A DNA stretch of 34,417 nt from Acidobacteriota bacterium (lineage in GTDB: Bacteria > Acidobacteriota > Terriglobia > Bryobacterales > Bryobacteraceae). Where the stretch lies: NCBI GenBank assembly GCA_016871055.1, contig VFZW01000022.1, positions 1 through 34,417 on the forward strand, given 5' to 3'. The position numbers and the translations under genes are program-made. Below, piece by piece: positions 12,243-23,371 of the stretch. The notes under the pieces are model-generated. The model was not told where the DNA came from. It made no database searches and saw only the letters and a program-made list of their open reading frames with translations. Every line of letters starts with the position of its first letter. Position 1 is the first letter of the stretch.

Positions 12243-12252
12243 TTCAATTTTT

Positions 12253-12306
12253 CACTTGCAAGTGGTGGTCGAGTCATGTTAGTCTGACTAAGTCGTCGTC
12301 GACGAC
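12253..12306. promoter_or_regulatory. Cluster of three palindromes downstream of the ATPase gene
   Basis: Three short palindromes occur within 54 bp: CACTTGCAAGTG (12253-12264), TTAGTCTGACTAA (12279-12291) and GTCGTCGACGAC (12295-12306). The middle one recurs as TTAGTATGACTAA at 19608-19620, and both copies are followed by GT and preceded by a GAGTCA[TC]G string. This suggests binding sites of one regulator acting on the structured RNA / slipin unit downstream and on the membrane-protein gene at 19621. The regulator is not identified. Confidence 0.45.
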
Positions 12307-12436
12307 CGTTATGACAAGCACGAACGAACGCAAACAAATCCGTGATTCCTTCGCGCGAGCGTGTAGACTTCCAATAGTCCTATCGCGGCGCGGATAATTG
12401 CGCGCGGCTATTTTCTAAGTTTGCCATCACTTCGAT

Positions 12437-12743
12437 GGCTTGCAAGGGTGTCCTCGACCGGATAAGTGCCCCGGGGCGGCAGCGTCTTATCGCTGCGCGG
12501 CGCAGGCTCGCTGAGTGACTGCGTACCGGCCTTTTCGCGTCGTTGACCTATTCGACGACTAGCTCAACGGTTAGAGCATTGGGCAATCCCCCAAGGGTTG
12601 CGGGTTCGACTCCCGCGTCATCGCCAACTAACGACCAGCCTGTAAAGCTGACTCCGTGAATCTGCAATTCACCGGGCCGCCGAGTTCTTTTGGGGAACGG
12701 CTTTGCGCCAAGTGGAAACTGTCACTTATCGAGGTTTGCTAAG
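12437..12743 (+). ncRNA. Large structured RNA enclosing a tRNA-like domain, upstream of slipin
   Basis: Nested complementary segments can be read directly. Outer helix: 12439-12445 with 12736-12743 (one bulge). Next: CCTC 12452-12455 with GAGG 12731-12734, a 5-nt bulge, then GATAAGTG 12461-12468 with CACTTATC 12723-12730. Inside: hairpin GCAGCG/CGCTGC (12479-12484, 12491-12496); GGCGCA 12499-12504 with TGCGCC 12704-12709; CGGCC 12527-12531 with GGCCG 12675-12679; GTCGTT 12539-12544 with AACGAC 12630-12635, which closes on the tRNA-like element; and hairpins GTGAAT/ATTCAC (12656-12661, 12667-12672) and GTTC/GAAC (12684-12687, 12695-12698). CGCAG/CTGCG (12501-12505, 12519-12523) competes with one long-range helix. 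The sense strand is fixed by the tRNA-like arms. The ends are approximate. It is either an independent RNA or the 5' leader of slipin. It is not tmRNA, RNase P RNA or 6S by any motif I can see. Confidence 0.65.
12553..12626 (+). other. tRNA-like cloverleaf domain (not a decoding tRNA)
   Basis: Acceptor-like stem CGACGAC (12553-12559) with GTCATCG (12617-12623), 6 of 7 pairs and one C-A mismatch. T60-A61 then D stem GCTC/GAGC (12562-12565, 12574-12577) with the GG-containing loop AACGGTTA. Anticodon-position stem TTGGG/CCCAA (12579-12583, 12590-12594) with a 6-nt loop CAATCC. Variable region GGGTT. T stem GCGGG/CCCGC (12600-12604, 12612-12616) with the canonical loop TTCGACT. CCA follows at 12624-12626, directly after the 7-nt strand with no discriminator base. 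The loop lacks U33 and has six, not seven, bases, and forcing a 7-nt loop breaks the stem, so no usable anticodon exists. Confidence 0.75.
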
Positions 12744-12757
12744 TGGCTTATAACTTC

Positions 12758-12790
12758 GGCCCGCCGTTATGGCGGAAAAAGGGCCGGCCC
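12758..12790 (+). promoter_or_regulatory. Hairpin-forming segment between the structured RNA and slipin
   Basis: CGGCCC (12758-12763) can pair with GGGCCG (12781-12786), enclosing a small GCC/GGC hairpin; alternatively CCGCC/GGCGG (12761-12765, 12771-12775) forms with a 5-nt loop. GGGCCGGCCC at 12781-12790 is itself a palindrome. An A-run, not a T-run, follows the inner hairpin, so this is not a plus-strand intrinsic terminator. It lies 45 bases before the slipin start and could modulate translation. Confidence 0.35.
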
Positions 12791-12834
12791 CCCGGTGGGT
12801 TATTCAGAACATTTTCAAGAAGGAGGAGAAACCA

Positions 12835-13956
12835 ATGTGGAAGAAAGTAATTGTACGTGAAACCGAGCGCGCCCTGGTGTTGGAGCGTGGCCGTTTGGCC
12901 GCGGTTCTGGGTCCGGGCGTGCACCGCGTGTGGACGTTCGCGCGCGGCATCGAGATCGAAATCCTGTCGACGTTGCTGACCAAGGCTGTGCCGGCATGCG
13001 GCGCCGAACTGGTCCGCGCGAAGTCCGCGTTGGTTGACGAGTACTTCGAGCGCGTGATCGTTGCCGAGGGCCGCGTCGCCGTGGTCTTCTCCGACAAGAT
13101 GTTGATCTCCGTGCTCGGCCCCGGTGAGACCGCGTTGATCTGGAAAGCGCCCCGCGCAATCGAGATCCGCGAGTTCGACATCGTGGCCGAGCCCGAGGTC
13201 GACGCTGCGATGTTGCCCGCTCTCACCCGCATGGGCGCGAACGCGGCCAAGGTGCAGTTCGTCACGGTGCCCGACCAGACCGCGGCGCTGGTCTATGTGA
13301 ACGGCAAGTTCGTTCGCGTGGCCGGTCCCGGTGTGACGGCGTTCTGGACGGCGCTCGGCGCGGTACGCGTCGAGTTCGTCGACCTGCGTCGCCAGATGCT
13401 CGACATCAACGGCCAGGAGATGTTGACCAAGGACAAGGTCACTCTGCGTGTGAACATCGCCGCCGAGTACCGCGTCGTTGATCCCGTTCTGGCGGCGTCG
13501 AAGGTTCGCAACGCCGGTGAAGTGTTGTACCGCTTGCTGCAATTGGCGGTACGGCGCGCTATCGGTTTGAAGACGCTCGACGAGTTGCTTGCCGACAAGG
13601 TCGAGATCGATGCCATCGCGGCCGGAGCGATCCGTGCCGAGATGTTGTCGATCGGCGTCGAGGTCGGCGCGATGGCGCTCAAGGACGTCATTCTGCCTGG
13701 CGAGATCCGCGAGATCTTGAACCAGGTAGTGGCGGCCGAAAAGCAGGCGCAGGCCAACCTGATCAAGCGCCGTGAAGAGACGGCGGCCGCGCGGTCGCTG
13801 TTGAACACGGCGAAGTTGATGGAGGAGTCGCCTCTGTTGCTTCGTTTGAAGGAACTGGAGACGCTCGAGAAGTTGACGGAGAAGGTTGGTTCCGTGACGG
13901 TGACCGGTGGCTTCGAGGGCATGCTCGAGAAGTTGCTGGTGCCGATCCGGAAGTAA
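12835..13956 (+). CDS. Slipin / SPFH (band 7) family protein without an N-terminal membrane helix
   Basis: 373 residues from ATG 12835, chosen because AAGGAGG lies 8-10 bases upstream; a longer frame from 12769 would run through that site. Three repeats of a motif ending in GPG are visible: RALVLERGRLAAVLGPG (12-28), VVFSDKMLISVLGPG (83-97) and ALVYVNGKFVRVAGPG (151-166). The SPFH core follows: DLRRQMLDINGQEMLTKD at 183-200, RVNIAAEYRVVDP near 205-217, then a helical C-terminal half rich in Ala and Glu (VAAEKQAQANLIKRREETAA, 299-318), as in stomatins that oligomerise. Unlike typical stomatins there is no N-terminal transmembrane segment. Slipins scaffold membrane microdomains and often partner a protease (NfeD/ClpP class), but no partner gene adjoins. 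The immediate upstream region encodes the structured RNA; a strong GC hairpin follows the stop. Confidence 0.88.
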   Translation: MWKKVIVRETERALVLERGRLAAVLGPGVHRVWTFARGIEIEILSTLLTKAVPACGAELVRAKSALVDEYFERVIVAEGRVAVVFSDKMLISVLGPGETALIWKAPRAIEIREFDIVAEPEVDAAMLPALTRMGANAAKVQFVTVPDQTAALVYVNGKFVRVAGPGVTAFWTALGAVRVEFVDLRRQMLDINGQEMLTKDKVTLRVNIAAEYRVVDPVLAASKVRNAGEVLYRLLQLAVRRAIGLKTLDELLADKVEIDAIAAGAIRAEMLSIGVEVGAMALKDVILPGEIREILNQVVAAEKQAQANLIKRREETAAARSLLNTAKLMEESPLLLRLKELETLEKLTEKVGSVTVTGGFEGMLEKLLVPIRK

Positions 13957-20453: not shown

Positions 20454-22190
20454 ATGCGGATCGCATGGCTTTTACTCATGCCCATTGCATTCGGCCAGGG
20501 ATGGCCTTCGGTGCGATGGGAGCCGTTCGTAAGCGGCCTGTCCTCGCCCGTCGACATCCAATCGCCGCACGATGGCAGTGGCCGATTGTTCGTCCTGGAA
20601 CAAGTCGGGCGAATCAGGTTGATCCGCAATGGCGCGCTCGTCACGGCGCCGGTTCTCGACATCGCCGCGCGCGTCCAGTTCGGCGGTGAGATGGGACTTC
20701 TCAGCCTCGCCTTCCCGCCCGAGTTCGCAACCAAGCAATACTTCTACGTTAACTACGTCGACCGCCAACGCCGTACCATCGTCTCACGGTTCAAAATCAA
20801 CGGCGATGTCGCCGATCCCTCCTCCGAAGAGATCCTGCTGACCGTCCCGCAGCCCTTCACCAATCACAACGGCGGCCAGATCGTCTTCGGCCCGCGCGAC
20901 GGCTACCTCTACATCGGCATGGGCGATGGCGGTTCGGCCGGCGATCCGCAACGCCACGGCCAAAACCCCACTTCCCTGCTCGGCAAGATGCTCCGGCTCG
21001 ACACCGAACGCTCCTCGCGCCCTACACCCGAAATCTGGGCGCTCGGCCTCCGCAATCCCTGGCGCTTTTCCTTTGACCGCGAGACAGCCGACCTCTACAT
21101 CGCCGATGTCGGCCAGGGTGCGAAAGAAGAGATCGACTTCCAACCCGCCGACAGCGCCGGCGGCGAAAACTACGGCTGGAACCTGATGGAAGGAACCAAC
21201 TGCTATAACAACTCCAACTGCACAAATCGCGCCGATCTCGTCCGGCCCATTTTCGAATACGGCCGCGGCGACGGCGTCTCGGTCACCGGCGGCTTCGTCT
21301 ATCGCGGAGCGCGGTATCCGTTTCTGCACGGCGTCTACATTTGCGGCGACTTTGGCAACGGTAACATCTTCGGCGTGCGCCGCGCGGGCGATGGATGGGA
21401 GTCAACCAAGTTCGCCAATGCCGGCTCTCAAGTAAGCACTTTCGGCGAAGACGAAGCGGGCGAGATACTCATGGCGGACTACACCCGCGGCACGATTCGC
21501 CGCCTGGCCGCCGATCCGCCTCCGCTCGCCATTTCGACCATCGTGAGCGGCGCCGACTTCACCGCCGCCGGCGCTCCCGGTGCAATCATGTCGCTGTTCG
21601 CAAACGCAATCCCCGGCGTCGACGGTATCACCGCCGCCACGCGTTATCCGTTGCCAACAACTCTCAGCGGCGTATCCGTCCGCGTGAATGGAACCGCCGC
21701 GCCGCTTTACGCGGTAACCCCGAGGCAAATCAATTTTCAGCTGCCCTGGGACACGAGCGGCGATGTTTCGATCGCCGTTTCAGCAGGTGCAATCACCGCG
21801 CCCGTGTTCCGGCTTCGCACAGGCCAAGCCGCGCCGGCGCTGTTCGCGGTCGCGCAGCGGGGCGTCAACTCGTCGATCATCTCGGCGTCAAATCTCGCGT
21901 TGCGTGGCGAGACGATCATTCTCTACGCCAGCGGCCTCGGCACGGTTTCCAACGCGCCGCCCGCCGGCGCGGCCGCCCTCGCGTCGCCACTGTCGATGGT
22001 ACTCGGCAACACGGAAGTGTCGATCGGCGGGCGCTCCGCTCGCATCGATTTCGCAGGCCTCGCCCCGGGTTTCGCCGGCTTGTATCAGATCAACGTAGTC
22101 GTCCCGTCCGATGCCGCGCCCGGCGAATCGGAGGTCGTCTTGCGGACCGGCGGCGTGGGCAGCGCCACGTTTCGGATCAACGTGCGCTAG
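20454..22190 (+). CDS. Secreted PQQ-dependent sugar dehydrogenase-like protein with TIGR03437 C-terminal domain
   Basis: 578 residues from ATG 20454 (a GTG six bases upstream is possible). Residues 1-14 are a signal peptide. The beta-propeller domain matches soluble glucose dehydrogenase/HHIP-like enzymes: GSGRLFVLEQVGRIRLI at 41-57, catalytic-type His138 in NHNGG, GYLYIGMGDGGSAGDP near 150-164, WALGLRNPWRFSFD near 195-208, DLYIADVGQG and VTGGFVYRG. From about 353 a clear Solibacter C-terminal domain TIGR03437 follows, with GAIMSLFANAIPG, APLYAVTPRQINFQLPW, ETIILYASGLGTVSNAPP and GLYQINVVVP. It probably oxidises aldose sugars outside the cytoplasm, passing electrons to the respiratory chain. 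The TIGR03437 domain is likely for surface retention or secretion (inferred). Its stop shares the bases CTAG with the stop of the convergent gene. Confidence 0.92.
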   Translation: MRIAWLLLMPIAFGQGWPSVRWEPFVSGLSSPVDIQSPHDGSGRLFVLEQVGRIRLIRNGALVTAPVLDIAARVQFGGEMGLLSLAFPPEFATKQYFYVNYVDRQRRTIVSRFKINGDVADPSSEEILLTVPQPFTNHNGGQIVFGPRDGYLYIGMGDGGSAGDPQRHGQNPTSLLGKMLRLDTERSSRPTPEIWALGLRNPWRFSFDRETADLYIADVGQGAKEEIDFQPADSAGGENYGWNLMEGTNCYNNSNCTNRADLVRPIFEYGRGDGVSVTGGFVYRGARYPFLHGVYICGDFGNGNIFGVRRAGDGWESTKFANAGSQVSTFGEDEAGEILMADYTRGTIRRLAADPPPLAISTIVSGADFTAAGAPGAIMSLFANAIPGVDGITAATRYPLPTTLSGVSVRVNGTAAPLYAVTPRQINFQLPWDTSGDVSIAVSAGAITAPVFRLRTGQAAPALFAVAQRGVNSSIISASNLALRGETIILYASGLGTVSNAPPAGAAALASPLSMVLGNTEVSIGGRSARIDFAGLAPGFAGLYQINVVVPSDAAPGESEVVLRTGGVGSATFRINVR

Positions 22191-23371
22191 GCGGACTTCA
22201 GAATTTCGCGAAGCTTTTTCACCACGATTTTCTCTTCGCCGGGCTGCAGCATCCAGACACCGATCCCGAGGAAGTTCTCGCTTCCAGGCACCACTTCAAT
22301 CGAGGGATCGCCCTGTCGCATCTTCTCCGCCACGTCACGATAGCTGAGTTTGACCTTCGACGAATCCCACGTCAATTTCAAATGCGGAACGTGGTTGGCG
22401 ATCTCTGGCATATACTGCTCCGCCTTCACGGAAGGCGTCGACGCCACGCTGTCGCCGATGAACTTAACACGGCGCTCCCATTCCTTCCACTCGGCCTGAT
22501 GATCCTTCTTCAGGAAAGTTTCGACCGCCGCCAGCATGCCTAGGAGTTCTTCCTTGTTCACCTTCATGCCCCGCCCGATCGCATCGCCGTTCGGCGAAGC
22601 GTTCATTCGCGCGGCTTCGATCAGGTCTTTGCGGCCAAGCAGCAATCCGGCCGACTGCGGCCCGCGGATGCCTTTGCCGCCCGAGAAGGTCACCAGCGAG
22701 AACCCCAACTTCAAATACTTCGTCAAATTCTCCAGCGGCGGCGCATCGGCCGCGCAATCGTTGAAAGTAGGAATGTTTAGTTCTTTGCCGAGCTGCGCGA
22801 ACTCCGCATCCTTGACCTGCCCGCGGTTGTTGGCGTCGTTGAAAAACAGCGCCAGTGCGGCCTGCGGCCCGGCCAGACGCCGCATGTCGGCCGCGGTTTC
22901 GAATTCGACCATCTTCACGCCGCAATTGCGAACCGCGCGATCGTAACCGAATCGATGCGCCTTCTGAATCAGGACCTCGCTCTTCATCCCGGTCAAATCC
23001 GGAATCTGCTGTATGAACTTGCGGTTCGATCCGGTTAGACACGCCGCCGTGCCTAGCGTCAGCGCCGACGCCGCGCCCGCCGACACCATCGCGCCTTCGG
23101 CATTCAACAGTTCGGCGATGCGCTTGCCGACCGCGTCATGCAACTCGGCGAGACGGCAGAAATGTTTCGAAGAGTAGTTGATTGCCTCCATCACCTCCGG
23201 CAACATGAGCGAGGCCGTGAACGAGGTGTAGGTGCCGGCCGCGTTAATAATCGGTTTTACACCGAGCTCCTTGAAGAAGTCGCGCTTGGTGGCGGCGGCA
23301 GCGGCGGGCGCCAGCGAACCCGCGAGCGGCGCGGCGATCGATCCGGTGATGAACTTGCGTCGGTTGGCCAT
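22187..23371 (-). CDS. SelA-like PLP-dependent enzyme with Tat-like leader
   Basis: 394 residues. MANRRKFITGSIAAPLAG plus an Ala-rich stretch to residue 27 is a Tat-like signal, unusual for a fold-type I PLP enzyme. The catalytic domain matches the SelA / glucosaminate-ammonia-lyase-like family: GVKPIINAAGTYT at 37-49, small-residue-rich VSAGAASALTLGTAACL (96-112), PLP-binding Asp205 in NDCAAD, and Lys233 in SGGKGIRGPQ for the Schiff base. It lacks the N-terminal domain of true selenocysteine synthase, and no selB/selD lies nearby, so selenocysteine synthesis is unlikely. An amino-sugar or amino-acid lyase/aldolase acting outside the cytoplasm is the better guess. AGGAG is well placed before the ATG. 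Convergent with the sugar dehydrogenase. Confidence 0.88.
   Translation of the reverse strand: MANRRKFITGSIAAPLAGSLAPAAAAATKRDFFKELGVKPIINAAGTYTSFTASLMLPEVMEAINYSSKHFCRLAELHDAVGKRIAELLNAEGAMVSAGAASALTLGTAACLTGSNRKFIQQIPDLTGMKSEVLIQKAHRFGYDRAVRNCGVKMVEFETAADMRRLAGPQAALALFFNDANNRGQVKDAEFAQLGKELNIPTFNDCAADAPPLENLTKYLKLGFSLVTFSGGKGIRGPQSAGLLLGRKDLIEAARMNASPNGDAIGRGMKVNKEELLGMLAAVETFLKKDHQAEWKEWERRVKFIGDSVASTPSVKAEQYMPEIANHVPHLKLTWDSSKVKLSYRDVAEKMRQGDPSIEVVPGSENFLGIGVWMLQPGEEKIVVKKLREILKSA

What the first reader, a model, noticed from the sequence alone, without database searches (positions are those of the whole stretch)
12437..12743. Structured RNA of about 300 nt with a built-in tRNA-like domain upstream of a slipin gene
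About ten helices, including long-range ones, nest consistently: an outer bulged helix (12452-12468 with 12723-12734), a long-range helix 12499-12504/12704-12709, 12527-12531/12675-12679 and 12539-12544/12630-12635, plus local hairpins. The tRNA-like domain sits at the centre. I know of no class with this layout and recognise no motif of tmRNA, RNase P RNA, 6S RNA or T-box. tRNA mimicry and a bulged terminal helix recall YrlA-type Y RNAs, but those are shorter and come with a Ro60 gene. This is the best candidate here for an undescribed system.
Basis: partly seen in the sequence, partly recalled or inferred. Interest (0 to 1): 0.87.

Follow-up and report, generated by a model that had tools for sequence, protein, structure and literature searches.

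The report
tRNA-like RNA paired with slipin
In front of a slipin gene this bacterium carries a large folded RNA with a tRNA look-alike built in; tRNA look-alikes sit before relatives of the same gene in four bacterial phyla, often beside RNA-repair genes, and this looks like an undescribed kind of RNA that may help cells cope with damaged tRNA.

Summary
The finding is real and larger than reported. An RNA of about 500 nt (about 12290-12800) with a tRNA-like cloverleaf (12553-12626) precedes a slipin gene (12835-13956). Five more genomes of the genus carry it. Six aligned copies keep one fold: 41 of 135 pairs are changed on both sides, 15.1 when shuffled. A model of its three-way junction built only from Gammaproteobacteria finds the window; the acidobacterial model finds 6 of 35 gammaproteobacterial loci at E up to 10. 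tRNA T-arms lie within 700 nt upstream of 75 of 80 slipin relatives in four phyla, against 46 of 1916 control stretches. In 18 of 36 gammaproteobacterial loci rtcB lies upstream of the RNA; 6 others have a sigma54-type site before it, which ties it there to the tRNA-damage (RtcR/RtcB) regulon. Rfam knows only the tRNA part. The anticodon loop drifts at about the neutral rate and is often aberrant, so it is hardly a decoding tRNA. Best reading: a tRNA-shaped partner RNA of a soluble SPFH protein whose predicted fold partly resembles the vault protein. The mechanism is inferred; there are no transcript data.

The parts
12253..12287 (+). Conserved promoter-like box (palindrome CACTTGCAAGTG ... 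CATGTTAGTCTGA); transcript probably starts just after it (inferred)
   Evidence: Strongly conserved in 6 of 6 acidobacterial copies. No sigma-70 consensus hit
12289..12443 (+). 5' leader hairpins (12289-12318, 12322-12352, 12353-12391, 12407-12443)
   Evidence: RNAalifold on 6 copies; 7 of 36 pairs with double changes
12447..12549 (+). Domain 1: closed three-way junction; P1 12447-12470/12528-12549, hairpin 1 12476-12498, hairpin 2 12500-12524
   Evidence: 9 of 17 P1 pairs with double changes in 6 copies; related to the gammaproteobacterial domain with 16 of 20 pairs double-changed; cross-phylum model hits both ways
12553..12626 (+). tRNA-like domain: acceptor 12553-12559/12617-12623 (6 of 7 paired), D arm 12562-12577, anticodon arm 12579-12594 with a 6-nt loop, T arm 12600-12616, CCA 12624-12626
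   Evidence: ARAGORN, Rfam RF00005 48.8 bits, arms read
12635..12651 (+). Hairpin directly after the tRNA-like domain
   Evidence: Kept in acidobacterial copies, 28 of 30 cells paired; a hairpin stands at the same place in gammaproteobacterial copies
12664..12800 (+). Domain 3: long 3' domain closed by 12664-12680/12784-12800, with hairpin 12721-12747
   Evidence: Hairpin 12721-12747 has 7 of 10 pairs double-changed; helix 12696-12701/12763-12768 has 3 of 6
12820..12829 (+). Shine-Dalgarno AAGGAGGAG of the slipin gene
   Evidence: Sequence; AGGAGG present in all 6 copies
12835..13956 (+). Slipin: SPFH protein with three tandem beta repeats, SPFH core and a long helix, no transmembrane segment predicted by hydropathy
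   Evidence: Pfam Band_7; repeats E 2e-14 to 9e-17; KD19 maximum 1.38; model pLDDT 82.3

Best explanation
It is an undescribed class of structured RNA, lying directly before the slipin gene and probably made as the 5' part of its transcript, that carries one (here) or two (many Gammaproteobacteria) tRNA-shaped domains between a three-way-junction domain and a large 3' domain. Shown by comparison: the fold, its conservation in Acidobacteria and Gammaproteobacteria, the place of tRNA-like arms before this slipin family in four phyla, and, in many Gammaproteobacteria, its place in RtcR/RtcB/sigma54 RNA-repair loci. Inferred: when tRNAs are broken, the regulon makes RtcB together with this RNA and the slipin. 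The slipin assembles into a ring or cage, as stomatin and vault protein do, and the RNA serves as its tRNA-mimicking partner, docking through the tRNA elbow and acceptor rather than the anticodon, to hold, sort or recruit factors to damaged tRNAs or stalled translation machinery. It would work like a Y RNA for Ro60, but with another protein.
For: Fold: 94.8% of cells paired against 87.3% shuffled and 34-40% for slid pairs; 41 of 135 pairs double-changed in 6 sequences. Gammaproteobacteria: 87.6% against 67.7% shuffled, 16 of 20 pairs double-changed in 29 sequences; 53 of 106 predicted pairs in 15 full-length copies. Purifying selection: in three close relatives the RNA flanks differ in 57 of 1077 pairwise site comparisons against 163 of 628 at fourfold sites of the slipin gene. 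Partner: T-arms upstream of 75 of 80 slipins, control 46 of 1916. Of 14 R1 matches in 390 genomes, the 12 at 38 bits or more all have a T-arm and a slipin downstream; 10 of these were not used to build R1. Other Band_7 genes of this genome: T-arm-like match near 1 of 5. Damage regulon: RtcB, RtcR and RtcA neighbours, sigma54-type sites (background 14 of 4583 stretches at the same score), RtcR activated by tRNA halves (PMC7790460, passages). Not decoding: a 5-bp stem with a 7-nt anticodon loop in 3 of 23 distal and 28 of 36 proximal or single tRNA-likes, U33 in 20 of these 31. Cage: PDB relatives by sequence are stomatins, several with 16 chains per entry; 6 of 9 listed vault chains align from residue 3-5 on, no other listed row before residue 115.
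Against: No transcript, binding or cage assembly has been shown. The RNA's fixed place just before the start codon would equally suit a cis-acting leader. The three-way junction was found in none of 39 Bacteroidota and Firmicutes loci; there only tRNA-like arms link them, and 3 of 8 Firmicutes and 2 of 31 Bacteroidota lack even a T-arm. Among 36 gammaproteobacterial loci, 11 have neither a forward rtcB upstream nor a sigma54-type site, and no junction was found in L037, L063, L073 and L085. RtcB was not found in this genome, so here the pair may work without it or the contig is missing; RtcR and sigma54 sites were not tested in the Acidobacteria. Within Acidobacteria the RNA was found in one genus only, which suggests transfer. 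The fold match to vault protein has rmsd 7.1-8.9 and Z 10.5-11.5, below the best SPFH-only matches (up to 15.0), so it is an arrangement, not proven kinship. Slipins of L068 and L070 carry a stop codon in the frame given.
Confidence: 0.45

Rival explanations
1. Cis-acting leader: the RNA is a 5' untranslated region that controls slipin (and operon) expression, for example by tRNA-type processing or cleavage of its tRNA-like domains when nucleases are active.
For: On the same strand and upstream in all 75 loci with a T-arm (the pattern was sought only there); domain 3 ends about 20-35 nt before the start codon; no terminator-like site between RNA and gene. RNAalifold pairs the slipin Shine-Dalgarno with the box at 12252-12257, which would matter if transcription starts upstream of that box.
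Against: That box looks like promoter, upstream of the presumed start; in Gammaproteobacteria only 2 pairs reach the Shine-Dalgarno. About 500 nt with two cloverleaves is large for a switch (general knowledge).
Confidence: 0.22
2. Bait or competitive inhibitor of anticodon nucleases: the tRNA-like domains occupy or are cut by toxins so that real tRNAs survive.
For: Place in the tRNA-damage regulon; Hughes et al. raise this for YrlA (PMC7790460, passage); proximal or single domains mostly keep a 7-nt loop (28 of 36), often C32-U33 and A37-A38.
Against: Loops change no faster than fourfold sites (6 of 20 against 163 of 628 pairwise comparisons, p 0.80), so no arms race is seen; distal domains mostly lack a 7-nt loop (20 of 23); the window has 6 nt.
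Confidence: 0.15
3. Stress tRNAs or processing signals: real tRNAs or RNase P punctuation marks co-transcribed with the repair genes.
For: NCCA follows 15 of 23 distal tRNA-likes and tandem domains abut; Anabaena co-regulates rtcB, a slipin and a 26-tRNA operon (PMC10272220, passages).
Against: Aberrant anticodon loops; 5 or 6 of 7 acceptor pairs in the acidobacterial copies; covarying domains 1 and 3 unexplained.
Confidence: 0.08
4. Bacterial vault-like particle: the slipin forms a closed soluble cage that encloses the RNA and damaged RNAs.
For: Tandem beta repeats plus SPFH plus long helix without a membrane anchor; 6 of 9 listed vault chains align from the N-terminus on, no other listed row does.
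Against: No sequence match to vault protein in Pfam or the PDB; fold alignments loose; no assembly data.
Confidence: 0.12

Closest known systems
YrlA-type Y RNA with Rsr (Ro60) in rsr-yrlBA-rtcBA operons
   Same: tRNA-mimicking noncoding RNA co-encoded with a ring-type protein in RtcB/RtcR operons
   Different: Partner is an SPFH slipin; TROVE gene not found in 24 of 26 genomes tested; about 500 nt with a three-way junction and up to two cloverleaves; no Y RNA match in Rfam
Eukaryotic vault (MVP with vault RNA, TEP1, PARP4)
   Same: SPFH-type protein without membrane anchor and with tandem beta repeats, alignable with MVP over most of its length; a small structured RNA goes with it
   Different: No MVP sequence match; three repeats instead of nine (MVP number recalled); RNA not compared with vault RNA beyond the Rfam scan
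tmRNA
   Same: Large RNA with a tRNA-like domain
   Different: tRNA part is internal, no Rfam tmRNA match, and the genome has its own tmRNA (158 bits)
Stomatin/slipin-NfeD operons (SPFH1)
   Same: SPFH core followed by a long helix
   Different: Two extra N-terminal beta repeats, no transmembrane segment by hydropathy, tRNA-like RNA upstream; absence of NfeD seen only among the proteins annotated in the window
Anabaena TrcR regulon (trn operon, rtcB, alr0740 slipin)
   Same: Slipin, RtcB and tRNA supply under one stress regulator (PMC10272220, passages)
   Different: True tRNA array on a megaplasmid; no tRNA-like leader in the passages read; homology of alr0740 with this slipin not tested

Membership tests
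YrlA-type Y RNA | Encoded with a Ro60/Rsr (TROVE) protein | tested here: not met
   TROVE in 2 of 26 genomes, not in G000; none among the annotated neighbours in the window
YrlA-type Y RNA | tRNA-like domain | tested here: met
YrlA-type Y RNA | Matches a Y RNA covariance model | tested here: not met
   Only RF00005 reaches cut-off in the window and in 16 loci; that Rfam holds a bacterial Y RNA model is recalled
Functional tRNA | Cloverleaf with D and T arms | tested here: met
Functional tRNA | 7-nt anticodon loop with U33 | tested here: not met
   Window loop CAATCC, 6 nt; over 59 tRNA-likes 31 have a 5-bp stem with a 7-nt loop, 20 of them with U33; with stems extended as far as they pair, 27 and 19
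Functional tRNA | Aminoacylation | not testable with these tools
   -
tmRNA | Rfam tmRNA match | tested here: not met
   No match in window; true tmRNA elsewhere in G000
Slipin/SPFH protein | Band_7 (SPFH) domain | tested here: met
   PF01145 E 2e-31
Slipin/SPFH protein | N-terminal membrane anchor | tested here: not met
   Maximum 19-residue hydropathy 1.38
Vault (MVP) | MVP sequence family | tested here: not met
   No MVP match in Pfam for the slipin or among PDB sequences at E up to 10
Vault (MVP) | Tandem beta repeats, SPFH shoulder, cap helix | tested here: inconclusive
   6 of 9 listed vault chains: Z 10.5-11.5, from residue 3-5 to 330-357, rmsd 7.1-8.9
RtcR/RtcB RNA-repair operon | rtcB or rtcR adjacent to the RNA | tested here: not met
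   Not among the window's annotated proteins, and no RtcB found in G000; met elsewhere: RtcB cluster in 39 of 80 loci, RtcR in 21

The most novel reading that the evidence does not exclude
Bacteria of at least four phyla make a vault-like ribonucleoprotein: a soluble, MVP-like SPFH cage paired with a dedicated tRNA-mimicking RNA, induced by tRNA damage. It would be the counterpart of Ro60/Y RNA, the other RNA-protein pair of rtc operons, and would place an ancestor or analogue of the vault, whose function is unknown, in bacterial RNA repair.
Probability: 0.2. Interest if true: 0.96.

Novelty: categorically new. Interest (0 to 1): 0.86.

Why it matters
It adds an undescribed RNA class with full tRNA mimicry to the tRNA-damage response of bacteria and pairs it with a protein family (SPFH) that, to my knowledge, is not known to act with RNA outside the vault. 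It gives a testable bacterial system for two open questions: what slipins in RNA-repair operons do (in Pseudomonas aeruginosa the SPFH protein PaFlo8 lies in the rtc locus, and PA4582 and PA4584 of the rtcB operon have unknown function; their kinship with this slipin was not tested), and what vault-type RNA-protein cages are for.

Tried and rejected
Rejected: chance tRNA-like sequence or pseudogene (covariation and purifying selection). tmRNA or another Rfam class at its cut-off. Fast diversifying selection on the anticodon loop: it looked hypervariable but matches the neutral rate. Ro60 link. A defence-system label: PADLOC gives nothing for four slipins.

Ten paper searches on slipin, RtcB, tRNA-like, stomatin, SPFH and vault show no description of this RNA in the listings and passages that I saw; the library holds open-licence papers only, and a main paper on RNA-repair systems (Burroughs and Aravind 2016, recalled) is not held.

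Dropped rows: L129 (27 bits, no motif) from the tRNA-like work; L122 gave no tRNA-like (its contig ends). L123 is a decayed copy without slipin but its tRNA-likes were counted. The catalogue of 59 tRNA-likes depends on my pattern and misses some that ARAGORN sees; loop counts depend on how far the stem is extended (searches give both). The p values treat pairwise comparisons as independent, which they are not. Slipin alignment A9 holds 27 of the 45 first named.

Full report
1. The observation. ARAGORN reads a tRNA at 12553-12625 without a proper anticodon; Rfam gives only RF00005 at 48.8 bits, the lowest of 38 tRNA matches in the genome, and only sub-threshold matches at relaxed settings. Single-sequence stability of 12437-12743 is unremarkable (z -0.79; 19 of 100 shuffles fold as well), so energy alone would not support the claim; conservation does.

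2. Relatives in the genus. A DNA search of 61 genomes finds the region in 7, the window's own included: 5 of the 18 other genomes of the genus (G003, G004, G005, G011, G014) and one 25-base match in another genus (L015, no tRNA). Each of the 5 has a tRNA-like domain at the homologous place with a different or no anticodon (TCT, TGA, none, none, TAG in that order) and a slipin 66-69% identical to the window's. Named copies of these five are Acidobacteria, among them Candidatus Sulfopaludibacter and Bryobacterales.

3. The fold. The six full regions were aligned (A4). RNAalifold, counted with controls without its promoter-region pairs, gives 135 pairs in 19 helices: 94.8% of cells paired (shuffles 87.3%, slid partners 34-40%) and 41 pairs changed on both sides (shuffles 15.1, slid 6-12). 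The structure was derived from this alignment, so it leans towards itself; the gammaproteobacterial data below are separate. Layout: 5' hairpins (12289-12443), a closed three-way junction (12447-12549), the cloverleaf, a hairpin (12635-12651) and a long 3' domain (12664-12800) ending 34 nt before the slipin start codon.

4. The same RNA in Gammaproteobacteria (the GTDB sense, Methylotenera included). A slipin search gave 80 loci of 177 relatives. Upstream of most gammaproteobacterial slipins lie one or two tRNA-like domains, two abutting in many, preceded by a domain with the motif CTGACGC...GCGTATC. Twenty-nine of these domains (A3) fold into the same kind of three-way junction: 87.6% paired against 67.7% shuffled and 27-38% slid; 16 of 20 pairs double-changed, P1 in 7 of 7 pairs. 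Full-length alignment of 15 copies gives 53 of 106 predicted pairs with double changes, in the first domain, both cloverleaves and the 3' domain. Model R1, built from Gammaproteobacteria only, finds the window at 12462-12541 as its best match outside that class in 610 kb (15.2 bits, E 0.08; E 0.0024 unfiltered in 18 kb), with L011 and L010 at their homologous sites; L012, L013 and L014 were not found at E up to 1. These E-values are modest. The reverse model R2, from the six Acidobacteria, gives 7 matches up to E 10 in 35 gammaproteobacterial loci; 6 are at the right place, three of them at E 0.004 or better (best 0.0002), and 29 loci are missed.

5. A family-wide signature. A strict T-arm pattern (five pairs around TTCRANN) occurs within 700 nt upstream, on the gene strand, of 75 of 80 slipins: 5 of 5 Acidobacteria, 36 of 36 Gammaproteobacteria, 29 of 31 Bacteroidota, 5 of 8 Firmicutes; in the same loci 46 of 1916 control stretches of either strand have one, ordinary tRNA genes included. 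In Bacteroidota and Firmicutes most escaped ARAGORN; alignments of two groups of Bacteroidota show tandem tRNA-like pieces, but the three-way junction was not found in any of the 39 Bacteroidota and Firmicutes loci. Prospective test: R1 was run over 390 further genomes. All 12 matches of 38 bits or more have a T-arm and a slipin downstream, 5 with RtcB within 1.5 kb upstream; two weak matches (24-25 bits) have neither. Two of the 12 were in the training set, so 10 are new. Distribution is patchy: 17 of 301 (one doubtful), 13 of 390 (one with a weak match only), and in 396 evenly drawn acidobacterial genomes, at strict filters, only the window's own.

6. Context. Among clusters around the 80 slipins, RtcB occurs in 39 loci, RtcR in 21 and RtcA in 4 (one representative of each cluster was annotated). 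Of 36 gammaproteobacterial loci, 18 have a forward rtcB upstream of the RNA, several in the order rtcR(-), rtcB(+), RNA, slipin. Six others (L048, L052, L068, L072, L080, L081, Thiothrix and Thiolinea) have a sigma54-type site scoring 11 of 12 at 66-78 nt before the RNA core; L063 has one too, but no junction was found there. Eleven have neither. In 12 of 19 loci with a forward rtcB a site of 9 or more lies before rtcB. Background in 160 nt is 14 of 4583 for 11 or more and 180 of 4583 for 9 or more. RtcR is activated by 5' tRNA halves with cyclic phosphate (PMC7790460, passages). RtcB was found in 23 of 26 genomes with this slipin, not in G000, G005 and G463; TROVE in 2 of 26. In Pseudomonas aeruginosa an SPFH protein, PaFlo8, lies in the rtc locus (PMC13086221, passage), and PA4582 and PA4584 of the rtcB operon have unknown function (PMC8619066, passage). 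Whether Pseudomonas aeruginosa has the RNA was not tested by name.

7. What the tRNA-like domain is for. Of 59 tRNA-likes read by pattern, 23 are distal (followed by another) and 36 proximal or single. D and T arms and most of the acceptor are kept by the terms of the pattern; the anticodon loop was left free. A 5-bp stem with a 7-nt loop is present in 3 of 23 distal and 28 of 36 proximal or single ones, with U33 in 20 of these 31; if stems are extended as far as they pair, 4 of 23 and 23 of 36. In L010, L012 and L013, over three pairwise comparisons, the loop differs at 6 of 20 positions, the tRNA body at 4 of 162 and the RNA flanks at 57 of 1077, and fourfold sites of the slipin at 163 of 628. 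So the loop is free (p 0.80 against fourfold sites) while the rest is strongly constrained (p 2e-33; pairwise counts are not independent). Reading: recognition is through elbow and acceptor, not the anticodon. This argues against decoding and gives no support to an arms race with nucleases.

8. The protein. The slipin has no transmembrane stretch by hydropathy. Residues 1-62, 64-134 and 136-200 hold three repeats of one beta domain (hhalign E 2e-14 to 9e-17), followed by the SPFH core and a long helix (model pLDDT 82.3, pTM 0.59). Sequence relatives in the PDB are stomatins, QmcA, HflK/C and flotillin. Foldseek adds the vault protein. In the 50 rows of VIA-align, 6 of 9 vault chains align from residue 3-5 to 330-357 (Z 10.5-11.5, rmsd 7.1-8.9), and no other row starts before residue 115; the tool warns that parts outside 128-355 are barely tested. 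A 2025 paper calls the vault an apparent exception among SPFH complexes for forming a complete enclosure and lacking membrane association (PMC12624060, passages).

9. Judgement. That this is a real, conserved RNA class tied to one slipin family, undescribed as far as my searches reach, I hold at about 0.95. That it acts as a trans-acting, tRNA-mimicking partner of the slipin in the tRNA-damage response is the best single mechanism, at 0.45; a cis-acting leader is the main rival.

Noticed in passing
L090 3271-3467, L094 454-2020, L103 2840-3397, L107 2391-3474, L108 3193-3606: In Chitinophagaceae and relatives, arrays of 2 to 15 tRNA genes lie about 2.5-5.5 kb upstream of the same slipin, with an AAA ATPase, an RNase H-like protein and RtcB in the locus: possibly spare tRNAs in the same damage locus.
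   Followed up: partly
Bacteroidota loci, cluster 2 (for example L038 4280-5308, L054 4275-5315): A WYL/WCX-domain regulator gene occurs in 23 loci and reads away from the slipin RNA in those printed, perhaps in place of RtcR.
   Followed up: no
L072 5576-6002: In Thiothrix lacustris the alignment shows one deletion that fuses the two tandem tRNA-like domains into one: one may suffice, or the copy is decaying.
   Followed up: no
L123 1500-1850: A decayed copy: the 3' domain is cut, the proximal T arm is damaged and no slipin follows in the held DNA, consistent with joint function.
   Followed up: partly
L068 and L070, 6001-7122: Slipin reading frames with an in-frame stop codon although the RNA looks intact.
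   Followed up: no
window 12253-12264: Palindrome CACTTGCAAGTG in the promoter-like box, conserved in part in the five relatives; possible operator. RNAalifold also pairs this box with the slipin Shine-Dalgarno.
   Followed up: no
23 proximal or single 7-nt loops: Consensus C32 U33 N A U36 A37 A38, which resembles the t6A37 modification context (recalled); the modification enzymes might recognise these domains.
   Followed up: no
window 22187-23371: Weak SelA (selenocysteine synthase) match, E 1e-7; not examined further.
   Followed up: no
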